32,740 bases of DNA. Source: Paracoccaceae bacterium (lineage in GTDB: Bacteria; Pseudomonadota; Alphaproteobacteria; Rhodobacterales; Rhodobacteraceae). Positions 4,469-32,740 of this stretch are shown in pieces. Every line of letters begins with the position of its first letter. Positions within the stretch are counted from its first letter, which is position 1. Under the pieces are notes generated by a model, which made no database searches, was not told where the DNA came from, and saw only the letters and a program-made list of their open reading frames with translations. The position numbers and the translations under genes are program-made. The stretch is taken from positions 1 to 32,740 of the forward strand of contig JAIXSA010000019.1 of NCBI GenBank assembly GCA_027484915.1, given 5' to 3'.

Positions 4469-5812
4469 TCAGACCGCAGCCTCCACCGCGCCCACGATCT
4501 CGTCCACGACGGCGGCCAGCAGGGCCTCGTCCTCGCATTCAGCCATGACCCGGATCAGCGGTTCCGTCCCCGATTTCCGGATCAGGATGCGCCCCAGCCC
4601 CTCGATCCGCTGCTCGCTGGCCCGGATCGCCTCCTGCACCGAAGCCACTTCCAGCGGCTTGGCCCCGGCGGTGAAGCGGACGTTCTTCAGCATCTGCGGA
4701 ACCGTCGCGAAGGACCGCGTCAGCTCGGACGCAGGCCGCCCGGTCCGCACCATCTCGGCCAGGAACTGCAGGCCCGCCACCAGCCCGTCCCCGGTGGTCG
4801 CATAGTCGGTCATCACGATGTGCCCCGACTGCTCGCCCCCCAGGTTGAATCCGCCCTCCCGCATCCGTTCCACGACGTAGCGGTCGCCCACCGCCGTCCG
4901 CTCCAGCCGGAGCCCGCGCCCTTCCAGGAACCGCTCCAGCCCCAGGTTCGACATCACCGTGGCGACCAGCGCACCGCCTGCAAGCCGCCCCTCCTCGGCC
5001 CAGCGGGCAGCGAGGAGCGCCATGATCTGATCCCCGTCCGCCACGCGGCCCGTCTCGTCCAGGATCATGATCCGGTCGGCATCGCCGTCCAGACTGATCC
5101 CGACATGCGCCCCGTGCGCCACCACCGCCTCGGCCGCCGTCTCGGTATGGGTCGACCCGCAGCGGTCATTGATGTTGGTCCCGTTCGGCGCGACGCCCAC
5201 CGGGATCACTTCGGCCCCCAGCTCCCACAACACCTCGGGTGCCGCACGGTAGGCCGCCCCATTGGCGCAGTCGATCACCACTTTGAGCCCGTCCAGCCGC
5301 AGGCCGGTGGGGAAGCTCGTCTTGACGAACTCCTGATACCGCCCGCGCCCATCCTCGATCCGCTTGGCCCGTCCGATGTTCTCGGGCTTGGCCGGCTGGA
5401 TCTCGCCCTCCACCAGCGCCTCGATCTCGGCCTCGGCGGCATCGGACAGCTTGAACCCGTCCGGCCCGAAGAACTTGATCCCGTTGTCCTGGTGCGGGTT
5501 GTGAGAGGCACTGATCATCACCCCCACGTCCGCCCGCATCGACCGCGTAAGGTACCCGACTGCCGGGGTCGGCACCGGACCGAGGAGAAGGACGTTCATC
5601 CCCGTCGAGCAGAACCCCGCCGTCAGCGCATTCTCCAGCATGTATCCTGAAAGCCGCGTGTCCTTCCCGATCACCACCCGGTGCGCAGACGACCCATCCC
5701 GACGGAAATACCGCCCCGCCGCCGCGCCAAGTTTCAGCGCCAGCTCTGCCGTCATCGGCCAGCTGTTCGCCCGCCCCCGGACGCCATCGGTGCCAAAGAG
5801 CTTTCTGGTCAT
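4469..5812 (-). CDS. glmM: Phosphoglucosamine mutase
   Basis: A 447-residue, full-length enzyme that interconverts glucosamine-6-phosphate and glucosamine-1-phosphate, the step before GlmU in UDP-GlcNAc synthesis for peptidoglycan and lipopolysaccharide. All four domains of the alpha-D-phosphohexomutase family are visible. The N-terminus is [10 protein letters not shown]; the active-site phosphoserine loop is [13 protein letters not shown] (Ser103); the Mg2+ loop is DGDADR (242-247); the sugar-binding loop is GGEQSG (325-330); and the C-terminal phosphate-binding loop is [10 protein letters not shown] (412-421). The ATG at 5812 overlaps the folP stop by 4 bases (ATGA), so the genes are co-transcribed and translationally coupled. 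A folP-glmM pairing is common in bacteria. No anomalies were seen. Confidence 0.98.
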
Positions 5813-6828
5813 GCCTCAGTCTCCAAATGATCGGTGTTCAATGCCTGCCAAAGACGCAGCGCCTGCCGCGTCTCGGCCACGTCATGCACGCGGACGATCT
5901 GTACGCCCTGTGCCACGCCCGCAAGCGCCGTGGCGATGGACCCAGGCGCACGATCCTGCGGATCGGGTGCCCCGCCGATGCTGCCGATGAACCGCTTGCG
6001 CGAGGTGCCTAGCAGGATCGCGCAGCCAAGCCCGTGGAACAGCGACAGGCCCCGGATGAGCGCAAGGTTGTGGGCTTGCGTCTTCCCGAACCCGATACCG
6101 GGATCAAGGACGATGCGGGCACGGTCGATCCCCAGCGCTTCGGCCCGGGCCAGGCGGGCGGCAAGGGCGTCGTAGACGTCCAAGAGCACATCCGCATACA
6201 GCGGATTGTCCTGCATCGTCGCGGGCACGCCTTGGGCGTGCATCAGGACCACCGGGACGGCAGTCTTTGCCACCATGGGGCCAAGCGCGGGGTCAAAGTC
6301 GAAGGCCGAGACATCGTTGACGATGGTCGCCCCGGCCTGCAGCGCCGCCTCGGCCACGGGGGCTTTTCGCGTGTCTATGGACAGGGGCGCAGTCAGCCCG
6401 CCCTCGCGCAGGGCCCGGATCACCGGGACAGTGCGGGCGATCTCCTCGGCCACGGGAACTTCCGCCGCGCCCGGACGGGTGCTTTCGCCGCCGACGTCGA
6501 TGATCTCGGCCCCCTTGGCCATCAAGGTTGCCTGCGCAACGGCTGCGTCAGCCCCAAGGAACTTGCCCCCGTCCGAAAAGCTGTCAGGTGTCACGTTCAG
6601 GATGCCCATCAGGCGCGGGCGGTCCAGTGCCAGCCCCGCGAAGGCCGGGCGCGTCTCTGTCAGGCGGTGCAGAACCGGCGCAGGGAGCTCAAAGGCAGGA
6701 ATGATCCGGCCTTTGGCGGCACGGGACAGGACTTCAACCCGGTCGAACCAGCACCAGCCGCCAGCCAACGAAAACGCGCCCGCCGGACGCGCGGGATCGG
6801 TCATCGCGATGGGACGGTAATATTCCAT
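5809..6828 (-). CDS. folP: Dihydropteroate synthase
   Basis: A 339-residue enzyme that condenses 6-hydroxymethyl-dihydropterin pyrophosphate with p-aminobenzoate to give dihydropteroate; it is the sulfonamide target. The TIM-barrel signatures are complete: [14 protein letters not shown] (75-88), [10 protein letters not shown] (111-120), LSIDTRKA (149-156), NDVSA, MHAQG (196-200), DPGIGFGK (242-249), GTSRKRF (274-280) and RVHDV near the end. It carries about 70 residues before the barrel, rich in aromatic residues ([12 protein letters not shown]), which makes it longer than the roughly 280-residue E. coli enzyme. I kept the ATG at 6828; an internal Met at 6804 lacks a ribosome site. It sits 45 bases after folB and overlaps glmM by 4 bases. 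Confidence 0.97.
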
Positions 6829-6873
6829 GCCCCCGGAGTGGCCGATGGTCCGCCGCTTTTCAAGGGGGAAGCT

Positions 6874-7773
6874 TCAGGCGCGCCGCACCGGGACGCGGCT
6901 TCCTGCCGGGACTGCAACGTCACCGTGAACGACCAGCGCTGTGGCTGACATGGTCTCTGCCAGCCACAGGGCAAGACTGACCGGCTCGGACCCCTTCGGC
7001 CCGTCCACCGCGTCGAGCACCAGCTTGGACGGCGCCCAGACCACCGACTGCCCCCGCTTGATCGCCCAGTCGATCTCGGTCCGCGTCGCCACCACCACAC
7101 AGCGCGGATCGCGCGCAGCAAGCGTCCAGGCATTCTGCTCCATCGCCAGAAGATCCACCCGGCGCTGGGTCGGCTTGTGGCCGGTAACGGGGCGCGGCAG
7201 GTCCGGCAGGCCCACGGCTAGGATCAGCGGCAGACCTTCCGAAAGCAGTCCATCCAGCCGCGCCGAAAGGTCCGGTGCCTGGATCGTCGAATTGTCCAGA
7301 AAGACGACCAGCGGATGCACGGCTTCCATCCCCTCGGTCTGGACCGGGCGTTCGGCACGGGACCGGACGATTTCCACCCCAAGCGCATAGGGCCCGATGT
7401 CCAGCTTTTCGATCCGCACGAAGACCCGCATGGCGGCAGGTTCGGCCAGAATGCGCTCGGCCACCCGCTCGGCCAGAGTCTCCAGAAGGTTCAGCCGTTC
7501 CGCGGCAAGTTCGGCATCGATGGCCTCGGTGATCCGGTCGTAAGACAGGATGCGGTCGACGTCATCCTCCAGCGGTTCGGTGACAGGCCGCACCTCGACC
7601 ACCACGTTGAACCGCAGACGCTGCTTGTGGCCGCGTTCCTTCTGGAAGGCGCCGATATCCGCCTCGACCACATGGTCGCGCAAGCTGATCCGGTCACGCG
7701 GAGCAGCCCCGGCCGAAGCCTCTGCCCTATCCTCGGGATGGGCGAAGGCAAGCTCGATGTCGGACATGGTCAT
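6874..7773 (-). CDS. folB: Dihydroneopterin aldolase with an amino-acid-kinase-like C-terminal domain
   Basis: A 299-residue protein. Residues about 28-137 are a dihydroneopterin aldolase domain, which cleaves 7,8-dihydroneopterin to 6-hydroxymethyl-dihydropterin and glycolaldehyde. It has the expected GAFQKERGHKQRLRFNV segment with the substrate-binding Glu46, the LLETLAERVAERIL helix, and the catalytic lysine in IEKLDIG (Lys123). A typical FolB ends there at about 120 residues. The remaining 160 residues look like a degenerate amino-acid-kinase fold: a first strand where the glycine-rich loop should be (VVFLDNST), then RRVDLLAMEQNAWTLAA, VVWAPSKLVLD and PVSLALWLAETMSATALVV. The ATG at 7773 has GGAGG at good spacing; a second Met lies two codons on. 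It heads the folB-folP-glmM run. Confidence 0.88.
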   Translation of the reverse strand: MTMSDIELAFAHPEDRAEASAGAAPRDRISLRDHVVEADIGAFQKERGHKQRLRFNVVVEVRPVTEPLEDDVDRILSYDRITEAIDAELAAERLNLLETLAERVAERILAEPAAMRVFVRIEKLDIGPYALGVEIVRSRAERPVQTEGMEAVHPLVVFLDNSTIQAPDLSARLDGLLSEGLPLILAVGLPDLPRPVTGHKPTQRRVDLLAMEQNAWTLAARDPRCVVVATRTEIDWAIKRGQSVVWAPSKLVLDAVDGPKGSEPVSLALWLAETMSATALVVHGDVAVPAGSRVPVRRA

Positions 7774-27706: not shown

Positions 27707-28405
27707 TCAGCCCGCGCCCGCATAAAGCATGGCGCCCCAAAGGATCAGCGCCTGTCCGGCCCAATAGGCAGGCCACAATGCCAGCGCCAGCCGCTTTCGC
27801 CAAGCGGCCGATTTCACCACGAAAAGCTGCAGCGCCAGCATCAGGTCCGACAGGATGAAAAGCGTTGCTCCCAGCCGCAGTTCCGTCTGCCCCGGATGGG
27901 TCGGCAACAGCACCGCAGCCACACCCATCAGTCCGATCAGCCCGACATAGCCCCGAACCGGAGGACGCAGTTCTCCAGTGCGCGGGGCAAGCCAGACTTC
28001 GGTCGACAGAAACAGTACCAGCAGAACCGCCAGCGCCGTGACCTCGCCGATGCCCAGCCCGTCGAACCTCAGATCACCCGACCGCCAGATGAACCCGCCC
28101 GCATAGGCCAGATGCCCCAGCCCGAAGGCCGCCACTCCGGCCAGAAACCGCTGCATCCCGCCCAGCGCGAGAAGAAGGTCGCCCAGCGCCCCCAGCGCAA
28201 GGCCCAGCGGGATCAGCCAGAACCAGCCGCCGTACGGCATCGCCAGCGCCAACAGCGCCAACAGCCCCGTCGCGGCCGTCTTCACCGCCGCCCCTGCATT
28301 CCCCTTCACCTCGCGCGTCGCAAAGCCCAGCCAGTAGGCCACCGCCGCCGCCAACGACAACAAGGCTGTTGCAAGCGCCAGCGTTTCGCCCAAGTTGTCC
28401 GGCAT
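27707..28405 (-). CDS. Lysoplasmalogenase-like (YhhN/TMEM86) membrane protein
   Basis: A 232-residue membrane protein with about eight hydrophobic helices matching the YhhN family. Conserved acidic motifs are ALGDLLLAL in the third helix region and ILSDLMLALQLF near the end, with GHLAYAGGF between them. Characterised members hydrolyse the vinyl-ether bond of lysoplasmalogens; in bacteria without plasmalogens the role is unclear. I used the ATG at 28405 (MPDNLGET) because CAGGGGG lies 6 bases upstream; a longer reading adds 9 unsupported residues. It is divergent from the AlkB-type gene, with a 52-base gap. Confidence 0.8.
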   Translation of the reverse strand: MPDNLGETLALATALLSLAAAVAYWLGFATREVKGNAGAAVKTAATGLLALLALAMPYGGWFWLIPLGLALGALGDLLLALGGMQRFLAGVAAFGLGHLAYAGGFIWRSGDLRFDGLGIGEVTALAVLLVLFLSTEVWLAPRTGELRPPVRGYVGLIGLMGVAAVLLPTHPGQTELRLGATLFILSDLMLALQLFVVKSAAWRKRLALALWPAYWAGQALILWGAMLYAGAG

Positions 28406-28457
28406 CAAAGCCCCCTGACCTGTCCCCGCCACCAGACTTCACCGGACCAAGCCCCCG

Positions 28458-29510
28458 ATGCAAGCCCGCCGCCCCCTGCCGCTGTCCGCCTTCGCGCTGG
28501 TGGCCCTTGCCCCTCTGCCGCTTTTCGCAGCCGGGGTCGCGCAAGGCGGGGTCTGGCTCTGGGCGGCGTTTCTTTACATGGCGGTCCTCACGCTTTTGCT
28601 CGACCAGCTCGTCCCCCTGACAGCCGGCACCGCCGAGGATGCCGAGTTTCCCGCCGCCGACGCCCTGCTCGTCGCAGTGGCGCTGTGCGCGCTGGCCGTC
28701 CTGCCGCTGGCCACCTGGGCCATCGCCGGCGACAGCCCGCTTGATGGAGGCGAGAAGGTCCTTCTCTTCTTTGCCACCGGCTTCTGGCTGGGCCAGGTCG
28801 CCCATCCCGCGGCGCATGAACTGATCCACCGCCCCAAGCGCCCGCTTTTCCGGCTTGGCGCCGCCGTCTACGCCGCAATCCTCTTCGGGCAGCACGCCTC
28901 GGCCCACCGTCTGGTGCACCACCGGGCCGTGGCGACCCGCGACGACCCCAACACCGCGCGCGAGGGCGAGGGCTTCTACCGCTTTGCCCGTCGTGCCTGG
29001 GCGGGCAGCTTCCGCGAAGGCGCGAGGGCCGAAACCGCGCTGCGCGCCGGTCGTCCCGGCACCCACCCCTATGCGCTGTACCTGGCCACAAGCGCCGTCG
29101 CGCTGATCTTGGCCACCCTGATCGCAGGGCTGCCCGGCCTTCTGGCCTGGTGCGGCCTTGCGCTTCATGCCCAAAGCCAGATCCTTCTGTCCGACTACGT
29201 CCAGCACTACGGGCTGACCCGCGCCCGCCTGCCCGGCAGCAAGCTGGAACCCGTCGGCCTGCACCACAGCTGGAACACCGCGCACTGGTTCACCTCGGCC
29301 CTGATGCTGAACGCGCCGCGCCATTCCGACCACCACGTCCACCCCGCCCGTCCCTTCCCCGCGCTGCGCCTGCCCGACGAGGCCCCCCGCCTGCCCTGGC
29401 CCCTGCCCTTCGCCTGCATGCTGGCACTTTCCCCGCGCCTCTGGCGTCGCGCGATGGCCCCGCACCTGCAGCGTCTGCGGGAAACCCGACCCCGCAACAC
29501 GGCGGCTTGA
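28458..29510 (+). CDS. alkB: AlkB-family alkane/fatty-acid monooxygenase
   Basis: A 350-residue integral-membrane non-haem di-iron protein. The histidine boxes are in order: HELIHR (120-125), HRLVHH (150-155) followed by VATRDDPNTAREGEGF, DYVQHYGL (246-253, usually NYVEHYGL), and HSDHHVHP (289-296). Hydrophobic helices fill residues 10-115 and 205-240. AlkB enzymes hydroxylate medium-chain alkanes or fatty acids at the terminal position and need rubredoxin and its reductase, neither of which is here. The protein is shorter than the roughly 400-residue Pseudomonas enzyme; the family extends to other substrates, so the alkane is not certain. The small-protein array starts 55 bases downstream on the same strand and could share its transcript. 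Confidence 0.9.
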   Translation: MQARRPLPLSAFALVALAPLPLFAAGVAQGGVWLWAAFLYMAVLTLLLDQLVPLTAGTAEDAEFPAADALLVAVALCALAVLPLATWAIAGDSPLDGGEKVLLFFATGFWLGQVAHPAAHELIHRPKRPLFRLGAAVYAAILFGQHASAHRLVHHRAVATRDDPNTAREGEGFYRFARRAWAGSFREGARAETALRAGRPGTHPYALYLATSAVALILATLIAGLPGLLAWCGLALHAQSQILLSDYVQHYGLTRARLPGSKLEPVGLHHSWNTAHWFTSALMLNAPRHSDHHVHPARPFPALRLPDEAPRLPWPLPFACMLALSPRLWRRAMAPHLQRLRETRPRNTAA

Positions 29511-29565
29511 CTGGCCATCGCGGCCACTCTCTGGCACTCTCTGCCCGATCCAAACGGAGTCCCGG

Positions 29566-29958
29566 ATGCGTAGCCTGATCCTGTCGCTTGTCCTGTCCTC
29601 GACCCCGGCCTTCGCCGAGACACCCCTGAACGCCGAGCAATTCGACGCCGCCACCCGGGGCGACACGATCACCTACGACTACGGCGGCGGTCTTTTCGGC
29701 ACCGAAGAATACCTCGACGGCCGCCGCGTCCGCTGGGCCTTCGAGGGCGACCTGTGCATCTACGGCGTATGGTACCAGAAGGACGACCAGATCTGCTTTG
29801 AATACGAAAACGAACCCGGCGCGGCCTGCTGGCTCTATTTCCTTGAGGACGGCAAGATCCGTGGCCGTTACATGGGCGAAGGCGGCGGATGGGAGATCCT
29901 GGAATCCTCCCGCGACGGCGGTCCCCTGCCCTGTGCCGGACCGGACGTGGGGGTCTGA
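29566..29958 (+). CDS. Array protein 1: small exported four-cysteine protein
   Basis: A 130-residue protein with signal peptide MRSLILSLVLSSTPAFA. Cysteines lie at 64, 77, 88 and 123. It has FGTEEYLDGRRVRWAFEG, close to array protein 4 in the FGTEEYL part and to protein 2 in WAFEG. It ends LPCAGPDVGV. It has the best ribosome site of the array (GGAG, 7 bases before the ATG). It is the first gene of the run, following the AlkB gene by 55 bases; a short inverted repeat (TGGCC-atcgc-GGCCA) in that gap is too weak to be a convincing terminator. Confidence 0.88.
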   Translation: MRSLILSLVLSSTPAFAETPLNAEQFDAATRGDTITYDYGGGLFGTEEYLDGRRVRWAFEGDLCIYGVWYQKDDQICFEYENEPGAACWLYFLEDGKIRGRYMGEGGGWEILESSRDGGPLPCAGPDVGV

Positions 29959-30353
29959 TGCGGGCCTTGGTCCTGATCCTCGCCGCCCCCGCCAGCGCCG
30001 AGACACCCCTTTCCGCCGAGGCTTTCGCCGCCCATGTCGGCAGCGATACCATCACCTACGCCTACAGCACCGGCACCCGGGGCACGGCGGACTACGGACC
30101 GGACGGGACCCTCCTCTGGGCCTTCGAGGGCGAGCCTTGCTTCGACGGCATCTGGTTCGCCCGCAACGACGAGATCTGCTTCGCCTATCCCGACGGCCGC
30201 CTCTCGGCCTGCTGGCATTTCTTCCTGGACGGCCAGCGACTTCGCGGCGCTGCGACCGAGCTCGGCTCCGGCAGTACCGACCCCGTGACGATCCGCGAGA
30301 CCGGCCGCACCGACCAGGCCCTCGCCTGTCCCGGGCCCCAGGTCGGGGTCTGA
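29958..30353 (+). CDS. Array protein 2: small exported four-cysteine protein
   Basis: A 131-residue protein whose ATG shares one base with the preceding stop (TGATG). The signal peptide is short (MRALVLILAAPASA). Cysteines lie at 61, 74, 85 and 124. It is the most divergent of the first six: the common EYLPxR-x-VRW block is replaced by ADYGPDGTLLWAFEGE, and the gap between the last two cysteines is four residues longer than in most copies. It ends ACPGPQVGV. Its closest partner in the array is protein 1 (shared DTITY and WAFEG). Confidence 0.87.
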   Translation: MRALVLILAAPASAETPLSAEAFAAHVGSDTITYAYSTGTRGTADYGPDGTLLWAFEGEPCFDGIWFARNDEICFAYPDGRLSACWHFFLDGQRLRGAATELGSGSTDPVTIRETGRTDQALACPGPQVGV

Positions 30354-30356
30354 CCG

Positions 30357-30746
30357 ATGCGCGCTTTTGCCTTCGCTCTTCTCCTTGCCACCCCCGCCAT
30401 CGCCCAGACCCCGATGACCGCCGAAGAGTTCGAAGCCTTCGCCACCGGCAAGATGCTCGACTACTTCTCGGACGGCCAGGTCTTCGGGCGCGAGGTCTAC
30501 CTGCCCGGCCGCCAGGTCCGCTGGGCCTTCACCGCCGAGGAATGCAAGCTTGGCCACGGGTATCCTGAGGGCGAGCAGATCTGCTTTCTCTACGACGGCG
30601 ACCCTGAACCGAAATGCTGGCGCATCTGGCCCAACGGCGACGGACTGGCCGCAAGCTACGCGACCGACACCCCCGATATCCCGCCACGCGACGTGCGCGA
30701 GACGACCGAGCCTTTGGCCTGCCCCGGCCCGGACGTGGGGGTCTGA
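30357..30746 (+). CDS. Array protein 3: small exported four-cysteine protein
   Basis: A 129-residue protein starting three bases after the preceding stop. Signal peptide MRAFAFALLLATPAIA; cysteines at 63, 76, 87 and 122. Its N-terminal mature part (PMTAEEFEAFATGKMLDY) closely matches array protein 5, while its middle and end (CKLGHGYPEG, YDGDPEPKCW, RETTEPLACPGP) match array protein 6, so it looks like a mosaic of two neighbours. It ends ACPGPDVGV, encoded by codons ending in a GGGG tract that can serve as the next ribosome site. Confidence 0.88.
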   Translation: MRAFAFALLLATPAIAQTPMTAEEFEAFATGKMLDYFSDGQVFGREVYLPGRQVRWAFTAEECKLGHGYPEGEQICFLYDGDPEPKCWRIWPNGDGLAASYATDTPDIPPRDVRETTEPLACPGPDVGV

Positions 30747-30749
30747 CCG

Positions 30750-31139
30750 ATGCGCCAGCTTGCCTTCTCCCTCCTCCTTGCAGCACCGGCGCTTGCTGAA
30801 ACGCCCTTCACCGCCGACCAGTTTCAGGCGCATGTCACCGGCAAGACCGTGACCTACCAGCAGGGCGACTACATCTTCGGCACCGAGGAATACCTCCCCG
30901 ACCGAAAGGTCCGCTGGTCCGTTTCGCCCGACATGTGCCAATACGGCAGCTGGTATCCGCAGGATGACGACATCTGCTTTGTCTACGAATACGATCCCGT
31001 CCCGCATTGCTGGACCTTCTGGCTAAGGGACGGCGCGCTTGTCGCCCTGTCCACCGACGGCCTGCCCGGCCAAGAGCTGTACGAGATCCAGGCCAGCGAC
31101 CAGCCGCTTGCCTGCCCAGGACCCGAGGTCGGCGTCTGA
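30750..31139 (+). CDS. Array protein 4: small exported four-cysteine protein
   Basis: A 129-residue protein starting three bases after its predecessor's stop. Signal peptide MRQLAFSLLLAAPALA, then ETPFTADQFQAHVTGKTVTY. Cysteines lie at 63, 76, 87 and 122. It is close to the array consensus: FGTEEYLPDRKVRW, CQYGSWYPQDDDICFVYE, HCWTFW and ACPGPEVGV. The next gene's start overlaps its stop (TGATG). It and protein 6 share the TADQF opening, which alternates with the PMTxxxFEAF opening of proteins 3, 5 and 7. Confidence 0.88.
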   Translation: MRQLAFSLLLAAPALAETPFTADQFQAHVTGKTVTYQQGDYIFGTEEYLPDRKVRWSVSPDMCQYGSWYPQDDDICFVYEYDPVPHCWTFWLRDGALVALSTDGLPGQELYEIQASDQPLACPGPEVGV

Positions 31140-31543
31140 TGCGTGCAGCACTTCTGGTCCTGTTTTCCGCCACCGCCCTTGGCGCCGAAACCCCGCTGGC
31201 CGCCGCCAAGCCGATGACGCCAAAGGAGTTCGAGGCCTTCGCCACCGGCCGCACCCTCGACTATGCTGTCGACGGCACCGTCCTGGGGTCCGAAGCCTAT
31301 TTCCCCGACCGCAGCGTCCGCGATGCAGATACCGGCGGCCCCTGCCGTGCGGGCCACTGGTATTCCGACGGCCCCGCCATCTGCTTCGTCTATGACGGCA
31401 ACGACCGTCGCCACTGCTGGCATTACTGGCGCCAGGGCGGGCAGGTACTGGCAAAGCCCGTCACCGCCAGCCCGGACGAACCGGCCCAGATCGTGACGCC
31501 TGCCACCACCCCGCTTGCCTGCACCCCCGAGGTCGGGGTCTGA
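31139..31543 (+). CDS. Array protein 5: small exported four-cysteine protein
   Basis: A 134-residue protein, the longest of the array because of five extra residues (AAAKP) before MTPKEFEAFATGRTLDY. Signal peptide MRAALLVLFSATALGA. Cysteines at 69, 82, 93 and 128 keep the common spacing. The usual VRW is VRD, and the C-terminal block is LACTPEVGV, lacking the Gly-Pro pair. I used the ATG that overlaps the previous stop by one base; the same frame is open further upstream but inside protein 4. Confidence 0.87.
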   Translation: MRAALLVLFSATALGAETPLAAAKPMTPKEFEAFATGRTLDYAVDGTVLGSEAYFPDRSVRDADTGGPCRAGHWYSDGPAICFVYDGNDRRHCWHYWRQGGQVLAKPVTASPDEPAQIVTPATTPLACTPEVGV

Positions 31544-31544
31544 C

Positions 31545-31934
31545 ATGCGCGCAGCCCTCCTTTCCTTGGTCCTGGTATCGCAGGCCGCCGCTGAAGCCCC
31601 GCTCACCGCCGATCAGTTCGACGCCCTGACCCTTGGCCGCACCCTGACTTGGGCCGAGTTCGGCCAGGTCTACGGGGTCGAGCAATACCTCCCCGACCGC
31701 CGTGTCCGCTGGACCGTCCTGGGCGACGACTGCAAGCTTGGCCACTGGTATCCCGAAGGCCAGATGATCTGCTTTCAGTACGAGGACGACCCCGAACCCG
31801 ACTGCTGGACCATCACCCCGGGCGCAACCGGGCTTGATGCCCGCTACGCCGGCAGCGCCGCCGACTCCGTCCCCGTCGTCGTGAAAGAGACCACCGAACC
31901 GATGGCCTGCTTCGGCCCCGAGGTCGGCGCATGA
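31545..31934 (+). CDS. Array protein 6: small exported four-cysteine protein
   Basis: A 129-residue protein with its ATG one base after the preceding stop. Signal peptide MRAALLSLVLVSQAAA, nearly the same first residues as protein 5 (MRAALL). Cysteines at 63, 76, 87 and 122. CKLGHWYPEGQMICFQYEDD and the DPEPDCWTI run are very similar to protein 3. It ends ACFGPEVGA, with Ala in place of the last Val. It overlaps protein 7 by four bases (ATGA). Confidence 0.88.
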   Translation: MRAALLSLVLVSQAAAEAPLTADQFDALTLGRTLTWAEFGQVYGVEQYLPDRRVRWTVLGDDCKLGHWYPEGQMICFQYEDDPEPDCWTITPGATGLDARYAGSAADSVPVVVKETTEPMACFGPEVGA

Positions 31935-32320
31935 CCCGCCTTCTCCTCGCCCTCGCGTTGATCCCGTTGCCGGTGATGGCCGAAACCGACCCGCCGATGA
32001 CCCCCGAAGCGTTCGAGGCCTTCGTGCAGGGACGCACCTTCGACACCCATGACCAGACGGGCAGCTACGGGGTGGAAACCTTCCTGCCCGGCCGCAAGGC
32101 CATCTGGCGGGATGCGAACCAGTGCATGGAGGGGACCTGGCGGGTGCAGGGTGACCAGATCTGCTTCGACTACCAGGGCGATCCTACGTCCTATTGCTGG
32201 ACCTACCATGACCGCGGCGACTGGCTGATGGCCTGGCTTGATGGCGACCGGGGAACCGACCCGATCATGCTCTACCCCGCCGACGAGGTCGTCACCTGCG
32301 ACGGCTACTTCGGTGTCTGA
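31931..32320 (+). CDS. Array protein 7: small exported four-cysteine protein
   Basis: A 129-residue protein and the most diverged copy. Signal peptide MTRLLLALALIPLPVMA. It has PPMTPEAFEAFVQGRTFD, then YGVETFLPGRKAIW in place of VRW. Cysteines at 65, 78, 89 and 123 keep the C-x12-C-x10-C spacing. The last block is TCDGYFGV, so the GP-x-VGV tail, and with it the built-in downstream ribosome site, is lost at the very end of the array, where no further gene follows. A terminator lies 19 bases after the stop. Confidence 0.86.
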   Translation: MTRLLLALALIPLPVMAETDPPMTPEAFEAFVQGRTFDTHDQTGSYGVETFLPGRKAIWRDANQCMEGTWRVQGDQICFDYQGDPTSYCWTYHDRGDWLMAWLDGDRGTDPIMLYPADEVVTCDGYFGV

Positions 32321-32338
32321 CCGCGTTCCCGCAGACCC

Positions 32339-32362
32339 AAAATTCCTTGAGCAAGGAGTTTT
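32339..32362. terminator. Bidirectional intrinsic terminator after the array
   Basis: AAAA, then TTCCTT-gagc-AAGGAG (one G-T pair), then TTTT. The A-tract before and T-tract after make it usable for both the array (plus) and xseA (minus). It lies 19 bases after the last array gene. Confidence 0.8.
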
Positions 32363-32390
32363 CGGCCCAGATCCGGACGTGGTGACTGGT

Positions 32391-32467
32391 TAACAAGCGG
32401 AGAATGTCCGCAAACAAGCCATTGAAATTCCAAGGCTCCGCTTCCGCCCACGTGTGGGCAACCCCGG
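32391..32467 (-). repeat. Structured 3' element behind xseA (copy B)
   Basis: Read on the minus strand directly after the xseA stop: GCCCACACGTGG, 16 bases, GGAATTTCAA, a CTTG, a hairpin GCGGA-cattc-TCCGC, and TTAAC. This is the same order and spacing as copy A behind glmM at 4391-4468; the stretch from CTTG to TTAAC is the same length in both. The hairpin sequences differ but both keep paired arms, which suggests a conserved structure. Confidence 0.55.
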
Positions 32468-32740
32468 TCAGAACAGGCTCCCCTGCCCGCTCTCGCCCTC
32501 GCCCTTCGCCCGCTTCCCGGCCCGGCCGCCTACCAGAAGCCGCCCGTCCCGGAACTCGATCTCCAGCATCGCAGCCTTCTCTGCCCCGACCTTCGAGGTG
32601 ACGACCGCCCCGTCCCCCCGCACGACCGCATAGCCCCGCTTCAAGGTCTCGGCATAGCCCAGCGTGACCCGCGTCCGGTCCAGCGCCTCCAGCCGGTCGG
32701 CCAGCCTGCGGAACCGCTGGTCCAGCGCCGCGTCCATCCG
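32468..32740 (-). CDS. xseA: Exodeoxyribonuclease VII large subunit, C-terminal part (partial)
   Basis: The last 90 or so residues of XseA, the catalytic subunit of exonuclease VII, which degrades single-stranded DNA to short oligonucleotides. Visible are the coiled-coil end (LDQRFRRLADRLEALDRTRV) and the C-terminal family motif ETLKRGYAVVRGDGAVV followed by LEIEFRDGRLLV. The tail GKRAKGEGESGQGSLF is a basic, flexible end. The gene runs off the window's right edge, so the OB fold and catalytic domain are not seen. It converges on the small-protein array, with copy B of the 3' element and a bidirectional terminator between them. Confidence 0.92.
   Translation of the reverse strand, partial: RMDAALDQRFRRLADRLEALDRTRVTLGYAETLKRGYAVVRGDGAVVTSKVGAEKAAMLEIEFRDGRLLVGGRAGKRAKGEGESGQGSLF

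What the first reader, a model, noticed from the sequence alone, without database searches (positions are those of the whole stretch)
29566..32320. Seven-gene tandem array of a small exported four-cysteine family
Seven back-to-back genes encode signal-peptide proteins of 129-134 residues sharing one plan with C-x12-C-x10-C in identical spacing in all seven and a fourth cysteine 34-39 residues later. I recognise no known domain. Seven retained copies, all apparently intact, argue for selection on diversity or dose, such as recognising varied ligands or assembling into a multi-subunit structure. The cysteines fit two periplasmic disulfides (inference).
Basis: partly seen in the sequence, partly recalled or inferred. 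Interest (0 to 1): 0.8.

Follow-up and report, generated by a model that had tools for sequence, protein, structure and literature searches.

The report
Seven-gene operon of exported barrel proteins
Seven neighbouring genes encode small exported proteins predicted to be disulfide-pinned barrels, old and specialised duplicates of a gene that most of this bacterial family carries and that the protein-family libraries searched do not describe.

Summary
In detail: seven intact genes, 29566-32320 (+), 129-134 aa, cysteine spacers 12, 10 and 33-38. Gaps of -4 to +3 nt suggest one operon. No meaningful Pfam, NCBIfam or PHROGs match.

They are not recent or dose copies. Mature paralogues are 32-53% identical, and slot order is the same in 25 of 25 genus arrays. 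Five of seven slots are well-supported clades. A relative occurs in 128 of 149 sampled genera of the family, exactly one in 96.

AlphaFold2 gives confident barrels (pLDDT 91.8, 88.3). Lipocalin-like proteins lead the fold matches, but none reaches E 1e-3. In genus loci 123 of 133 copies end in [VILF]G[VA]-COOH, 94 of them as GPx[VILF]G[VA].

Best reading: periplasmic lipocalin-like binding proteins with diverged barrels and a shared docking tail, kept as specialists. The barrel is predicted; specialisation rests on phylogeny and constraint; export, ligand, partner and tail function are inferred.

The parts
29566..29958 (+). copy 1, slot A: four-Cys barrel protein, lowest omega of the slots (AF2 model 2)
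29958..30353 (+). copy 2, slot B, spacer 38 between Cys3 and Cys4; found in 7 of 25 genus arrays
30357..30746 (+). copy 3, slot C; found in 4 of 25 genus arrays (one doubtful), phylogenetic placement unsettled
30750..31139 (+). copy 4, slot D, present in 25 of 25 genus arrays (AF2 model 1)
31139..31543 (+). copy 5, slot E, present in 18 of 25 genus arrays; tail TPEVGV
31545..31934 (+). copy 6, slot F, present in 21 of 25 genus arrays
31931..32320 (+). copy 7, slot G, present in 20 of 25 genus arrays; variant tail GYFGV
28458..29510 (+). upstream neighbour: membrane fatty-acid-desaturase-like protein (PF00487); conserved neighbour, not shown to be a partner
32339..32362 (.). 10-bp hairpin with A and T runs just after copy 7, possible two-way terminator (weak: z -1.6; not flagged by the terminator scan)
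32468..32740 (-). convergent downstream gene, C-terminal part (xseA by recall, not profiled here; neighbour cluster C1)

Best explanation
The seven genes form one operon of secreted (periplasmic, non-lipidated) lipocalin/calycin-like eight-stranded barrels, each stapled by two disulfides. They arose by tandem duplication of a gene that most sampled genera of the family carry once, and were kept for a long time as specialised paralogues in fixed order. I think each barrel binds its own small ligand or protein surface in the periplasm, and that a shared, flexible C-terminal tail (typically -GP[DE]VG[VA]-COOH) docks all of them onto one common partner, so the array is a set of alternative heads for one envelope function. 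Shown by calls: gene layout, old positional paralogy, constraint, family-wide distribution, tail conservation. Predicted: the barrel fold. Inferred: single transcript, export, disulfide pairing, ligand or partner binding, docking by the tail.
For: Layout: 84 of 96 gene-to-gene gaps in 25 genus loci lie within -10..+30 nt, median 1.5. Paralogy: in a careful tree of 113 copies (12 array loci plus other genera) slots A, B, D, F and G are clades at 100/97 or better, E with two sister-genus copies at 90/93; slot order is the same in 25 of 25 arrays. Constraint: median omega A 0.156, G 0.259, F 0.293, D 0.315, E 0.371, B 0.486, C 0.518. Distribution: 128 of 149 genera. Fold: pLDDT 91.8/pTM 0.83 and 88.3/0.82; TP0435, potempin E and ApoD are listed for both models, LptY/YedD for model 1, avidins for model 2. 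Tail: 28 of 28 slot A, 26 of 26 D, 20 of 23 F, 19 of 20 E, 5 of 6 C, 5 of 8 B and 20 of 22 G copies end in [VILF]G[VA]-COOH. In 36 singletons of other genera the last seven residues are more conserved than the body (0.81 against 0.63, ratio 1.29) and 36 of 36 end in one column; eight neighbour gene families have ratios 0.25-1.19. The strict tail pattern occurs four times in the 3.8 Mb assembly, all in this array. The very end has low model confidence (last 3 and 5 residues average 45), as expected of a flexible end.
Against: 0 of 544 and 0 of 665 Foldseek matches reach E 1e-3, TM-scores are about 0.4-0.6, and the lists also hold other barrels such as carboxylase domains (rank 4 for model 1, 14 for model 2). 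Low confidence at the tail may only reflect the shallow 34-row alignment, and the ten residues before it average 77-78. Three of eight neighbour families have ends conserved as much or more in absolute terms (xseA-like 0.86, purD-like 0.88, C10 0.94). Slots B and C are rare and evolve fastest; damaged copies exist. No partner is known, and the conserved neighbour does not co-occur above chance.
Confidence: 0.45

Rival explanations
1. An array of periplasmic inhibitors or immunity proteins: each barrel blocks a different protease, lysozyme or rival's toxin, as potempins do for proteases (recalled) and as orphan immunity arrays do (recalled).
For: Potempin E is the best solved match of model 1 and fifth of model 2. 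Small exported proteins in tandem paralogous sets are typical of such systems (recall). Other genera have tandem sets of their own: G098 five copies forming one clade (support 94), G072 four, G120 two.
Against: Orphan immunity arrays turn over fast (recall), whereas here slots are orthologous and in one order across the genus and a copy is found in 128 of 149 genera. No protease or toxin was recognised among the conserved neighbours, though most neighbour clusters were not profiled. No inhibitor family in the Pfam scans.
Confidence: 0.2
2. A hydrophobic-ligand carrier working with the adjacent membrane desaturase-like enzyme.
For: The enzyme's close orthologue (about 237 bits or more) lies directly upstream on the same strand in 62 of 74 genera that have it, median gap 89 nt. 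Lipocalin-like folds often carry lipids (recall).
Against: Co-occurrence is not above chance: of 148 genera 65 have both, 63.5 expected, Fisher p 0.64; 62 have the family without the enzyme and 9 the enzyme without the family. The adjacency looks like inherited gene order.
Confidence: 0.1
3. The seven paralogues assemble into one hetero-oligomeric periplasmic structure.
For: Tight gene layout, fixed order, a shared tail that could swap between subunits.
Against: B is missing in 18 of 25 arrays, C in 21, E in 7, G in 5, F in 4 (some loci are cut by contig ends), and 96 of 149 genera have exactly one copy.
Confidence: 0.12
4. Neutral or dose-driven amplification with slow decay.
For: Copy number is 2 to 7 in fetched genus arrays; two copies with stops in G018, a truncated one in G014, a relic in L038; omega of slots B and C about 0.5.
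Against: Paralogues 32-53% identical, so not dose; omega below 1 in every slot; slots A and D in 25 of 25 arrays.
Confidence: 0.1
5. The conserved tail is a by-product of the ribosome-binding site of the next gene.
For: Genes overlap or nearly so; G-rich motifs occur in the last 24 nt of 60 of 97 non-last array copies (62%), slightly more than in last copies (11 of 21) or singletons (16 of 32).
Against: Singletons have no family gene after them yet 36 of 36 keep the same C-terminal column, and synonymous codons of the tail vary.
Confidence: 0.05

Closest known systems
Lipocalins / calycin superfamily (ApoD, sandercyanin, avidins, FABP)
   Same: Predicted short helix followed by eight strands; Foldseek probability up to 1.0.
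   Different: No match at E<=1e-3, TM about 0.4-0.6, no Pfam lipocalin hit; about 113 residues mature; the conserved G-x-W lies in the fourth strand (mature 50-52), not at the start as in the lipocalin signature (recalled).
LptY (formerly YedD)
   Same: Small eight-stranded lipocalin-like barrel with disulfide-capable cysteines; ranks 8 (4hwm) and 15 (9fz5) for model 1. Passages of PMC12644819 say that it stabilises the LptD beta-taco domain.
   Different: LptY is a lipoprotein with two conserved cysteines and a C-terminal helix; here no lipobox, four cysteines and a conserved C-terminal tail. Not among the 50 rows shown for model 2.
Potempin E (Tannerella forsythia; 8ehc/8ehd)
   Same: Best fold match of model 1, fifth of model 2.
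   Different: E 8e-3 at best, 11-17% identity; its inhibitory role is recalled, and no protease neighbour was recognised here.
TP0435 (Treponema pallidum; 4u3q)
   Same: Fold match of both models, TM 0.53-0.62.
   Different: 12-18% identity, another phylum; that it is a lipoprotein is recalled.
LIC10280 family (NF050085)
   Same: Weak profile match over most of its length: E 0.054 for copy 7; best 0.015, in 2 of 34 aligned members.
   Different: 13.8 bits against a curated cut-off of 100; not evidence of membership.

Membership tests
Lipocalin (calycin superfamily) | Eight-stranded antiparallel barrel | tested here: inconclusive
   Two confident AF2 models with a helix plus eight strands; lipocalin-like proteins among the top Foldseek rows but none at E<=1e-3
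Lipocalin (calycin superfamily) | Sequence profile match or N-terminal G-x-W signature | tested here: not met
   No lipocalin match in 7 copies or 34 aligned members in Pfam; conserved G-x-W in the fourth strand
Lipocalin (calycin superfamily) | Binds a hydrophobic ligand in the barrel | not testable with these tools
   needs purified protein
LptY/YedD | Lipoprotein signal and two conserved cysteines | tested here: not met
   0 of 121 genus copies with a lipobox; four cysteines in 178 of 182 copies
Potempin inhibitors | Inhibits a co-encoded protease | not testable with these tools
   no protease recognised among the neighbours that were profiled; most clusters were not profiled
MliC/PliC lysozyme inhibitors | Match to the Pfam family | tested here: not met
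   no such hit in the Pfam scans
LIC10280 family | Score at the curated cut-off | tested here: not met
   13.8 bits against 100

The most novel reading that the evidence does not exclude
A family-wide, undescribed periplasmic adaptor system of Rhodobacteraceae: one conserved C-terminal tail recognised by a common hub (for example a PDZ-type protease or chaperone that reads free C-termini), with barrel heads that in one genus diversified into up to seven positionally fixed specialists choosing different clients or ligands.
Probability: 0.18. Interest if true: 0.65.

Novelty: new variant of a known kind. Interest (0 to 1): 0.42.

Why it matters
A protein found in 128 of 149 sampled genera of a large aquatic bacterial family matches no family in the three profile libraries searched. 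The array offers seven natural, old variants of it in one operon, so function can be mapped by comparing slots, and the conserved free tail gives a simple, testable prediction of a shared partner.

Tried and rejected
Profile searches: Pfam and NCBIfam gave only chance-level rows, PHROGs at best E 0.012 to a family of unknown function. Solved-structure sequences with the 34-row profile: best E 0.44. Viral predicted structures: 0 of 305 at E<=1e-3. Plasmids: one hit, a 1.58 Mb Pseudorhodobacter turbinis record. Rfam: nothing in 28400-32740 at gathering scores. The promoter scan found none and its one terminator-like site lies inside copy 1.

Considered and rejected or weakened: partnership with the desaturase-like neighbour; dose; ribosome-binding-site origin of the tail; general sorting signal (strict tail pattern only in the array; it matches 4 of the 7 copies and the assembly is 95% complete). 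Slot G being older than the array (93/94 for joining L063_2) is not secured: holding A-G as one clade is not rejected, p-AU 0.63, nor A-F, 0.61; the held trees even scored better, so the deep branching is not the best tree.

Caveats. The signal-peptide test is a crude pattern. Omega is NG86, pairs with dS<2 only, dS partly saturated. Slots were assigned by the nearest window copy on the tree; L042_2 as slot C and the E of L041 and L050 are doubtful. The tail counts include L060 (same genome as L041) and L062 (another genus). The tree used 12 of 27 array loci and left out L099. One search left out L056, L060, L062, L099 and rows under 100 residues. The output was cut, so some rows were not seen there. 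The one-copy count (96 of 128) was made by eye, where at most 28 candidates per genome were scored and some single matches are weak. In one search the enzyme orthologues were picked by a bit-score gap, one genome (G184) was taken as lacking the family because one search leaves one genome unlisted.

Papers: searches (LIC10280; Rhodobacteraceae tandem paralogues, twice; potempin, twice; YedD with LptD and LptE; Tabrizicola genome; bacterial lipocalin with Rhodobacter; Rhodobacterales lipocalin; Rhodobacterales signature proteins). None of the listed rows was about this family, but three listings were short extracts (8 of 1,554, 10 of 70, 8 of 37). Only PMC12644819 was opened, as passages. PMC2241609 (signature proteins of alpha proteobacteria) was seen in the listing only and could name the single-copy gene.
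Full report
WHAT IS THERE. The seven ORFs are intact at the stated place. They are 129-134 aa, share 17 invariant columns including four cysteines, and have spacers 12, 10 and 33-38. Consecutive genes are separated by -1, 3, 3, -1, 1 and -4 nt, so a single translationally coupled transcript is likely (inference). A 10-bp hairpin with A and T runs follows copy 7; it folds only somewhat better than shuffles (z -1.6) and the terminator scan did not flag it.

FAMILY. No Pfam, NCBIfam or PHROGs family matches meaningfully. In its own genome the profile finds the seven plus one remote two-cysteine relative (L008). Of 24 other genomes of the same genus, 23 have matches, 1-8 each, remote ones included. 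Across the family, 128 of 149 genomes, one per genus, have at least one, 96 of these exactly one by my count. In a class-wide sample of 190 genomes 7 match; 4 of these lie outside the family, all weakly (best E 1e-8). So this is mainly a family-level protein (Rhodobacteraceae in the GTDB sense, by the titles of L037-L039; NCBI places Tabrizicola in Paracoccaceae), expanded in one genus.

LOCUS. In 66 loci (window and L037-L101) many copies lie in a conserved neighbourhood: ftsY (PF00448), a YhhN-family protein (PF07947), a PF00487 membrane enzyme, the family, then a convergent gene that I recognise as xseA and a purD-like gene (labels by recall; clusters: the ftsY cluster in 48 loci, xseA-like in 40, purD-like in 34, enzyme in 32). 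The enzyme's close orthologue sits directly upstream in 62 of 74 genera that have it, yet the two genes co-occur only at the chance level (65 seen, 63.5 expected, p 0.64). I read the adjacency as inherited gene order.

ANCIENT SLOTS. A tree of 182 copies and a careful tree of 113 sort array copies by position. Slots A, B, D, F and G are clades at 100/97 or better; E holds with two sister-genus copies at 90/93; C is unresolved. In 25 array loci (window, L037-L059, L061; L060 dropped as the same genome as L041, L062 dropped as another genus) the slot order never changes; A and D occur in 25, F in 21, G in 20, E in 18, B in 7 and C in 4. Only the window and L046 carry all seven. Some arrays are cut by contig ends, so these counts are lower bounds. 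Omega medians within slots are 0.16-0.52 (NG86, dS partly saturated). Thus the copies are old, distinct and constrained; neither dose amplification nor positive selection is indicated. Against this, G018 has two copies with an in-frame stop (slots B and F), G014 a truncated slot A, and L038 a relic between A and D (tblastn E 1.6e-5; the other four gaps tested gave nothing). Separate tandem sets occur in other genera; G098's five copies form their own group (support 94). How slots A-G relate at depth is not settled.

FOLD. AlphaFold2 with 34 rows gives pLDDT 91.8 (slot D) and 88.3 (slot A): a helix then eight strands. Foldseek against solved structures lists, for both models, TP0435, potempin E and ApoD; LptY/YedD appears for model 1 and avidins for model 2. 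The best E-values are 8e-3 and 1.3e-2, TM-scores about 0.4-0.6, and other barrels such as carboxylase domains are also listed. I take the fold class as likely and the family as unplaced. Distant relatives L008 and L104-L107 keep cysteines 2 and 3 and lack cysteine 1; L008 has only those two; L109 departs by keeping a cysteine near position 1. The fourth cysteine of L104-L107 was not examined. This suggests pairs 2-3 and 1-4 (inference).

TAIL. After the fourth cysteine most copies end at the same distance, typically as x-GP-[DE]-V-G-[VA]-COOH. Ends of the form [VILF]G[VA] are found in 28 of 28 slot A, 26 of 26 D, 20 of 23 F, 5 of 6 C, 19 of 20 E, 5 of 8 B and 20 of 22 G copies; preceded by GPx in 28, 26, 20, 5, 12, 3 and 0 of these. 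Of 48 copies from other genera 35 fit, and 9 of the 13 misses are copies of L099-L101. In 36 singletons the last seven residues average 0.81 against 0.63 for the body, and 36 of 36 end in one column. The ratio (1.29) exceeds those of eight neighbour families (0.25-1.19, 6-22 loci each), but three of these have higher absolute values at their ends (0.86, 0.88, 0.94). The strict coding pattern occurs four times in the genome, all in this array. A ribosome-binding-site origin is disfavoured because singletons, with no family gene behind them, keep the tail and synonymous codons vary, although G-rich motifs are slightly commoner in non-last array copies (60 of 97 against 16 of 32). Both models give low confidence (45) to the last three or five residues, which fits a flexible end but may reflect the shallow alignment.

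HOW IT MAY WORK. The simplest reading of these facts is a set of periplasmic binding barrels whose heads have specialised while a common tail docks them to one partner. Export, binding and docking are inferred. Inhibitor or immunity arrays remain the main rival, since potempin E is among the nearest folds, but slow, positional evolution and the widespread single copy speak against a rapidly changing defence array. LptY (passages of PMC12644819) shows that a barrel of this size can act by stabilising an envelope machine, which is the kind of role I would expect of the single-copy ancestor.

VERDICT. Confirmed array, partly supported interpretation, an undescribed family with a lipocalin-like predicted fold. 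Interesting as a tractable, conserved unknown; not categorically new.

Noticed in passing
window 32468-32740 (-): The convergent gene (xseA by recall) ends in QGSLF, which resembles a sliding-clamp binding motif (recalled); the end of this cluster is also conserved across 12 loci (0.86 against 0.72 for the body).
   Followed up: no
L008:1468-1860 (-), G000 contig C60: A remote two-cysteine relative of the family elsewhere in the genome; similar proteins without the first cysteine appear in a few other alphaproteobacteria.
   Followed up: partly
L099 (G098), L100 (G072), L101 (G120): Other genera carry tandem sets of the family (5, 4 and 2 copies); only 1 of these 11 copies has the GPxVGV tail.
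   Followed up: partly
L056 (G018) 5645-7222: One genus member has two copies with an in-frame stop in its array (slots B and F): decay or assembly error.
   Followed up: no
window 28458-29510 (+): The PF00487 enzyme beside the array has a second, more distant form (mostly 36-42% identical) elsewhere in many genomes of the family; the two could be confused in annotation.
   Followed up: no
NZ_CP039965.1 1182624-1182962: A family member (47% identical to copy 4) lies on a 1.58 Mb Pseudorhodobacter turbinis replicon listed as a plasmid.
   Followed up: no
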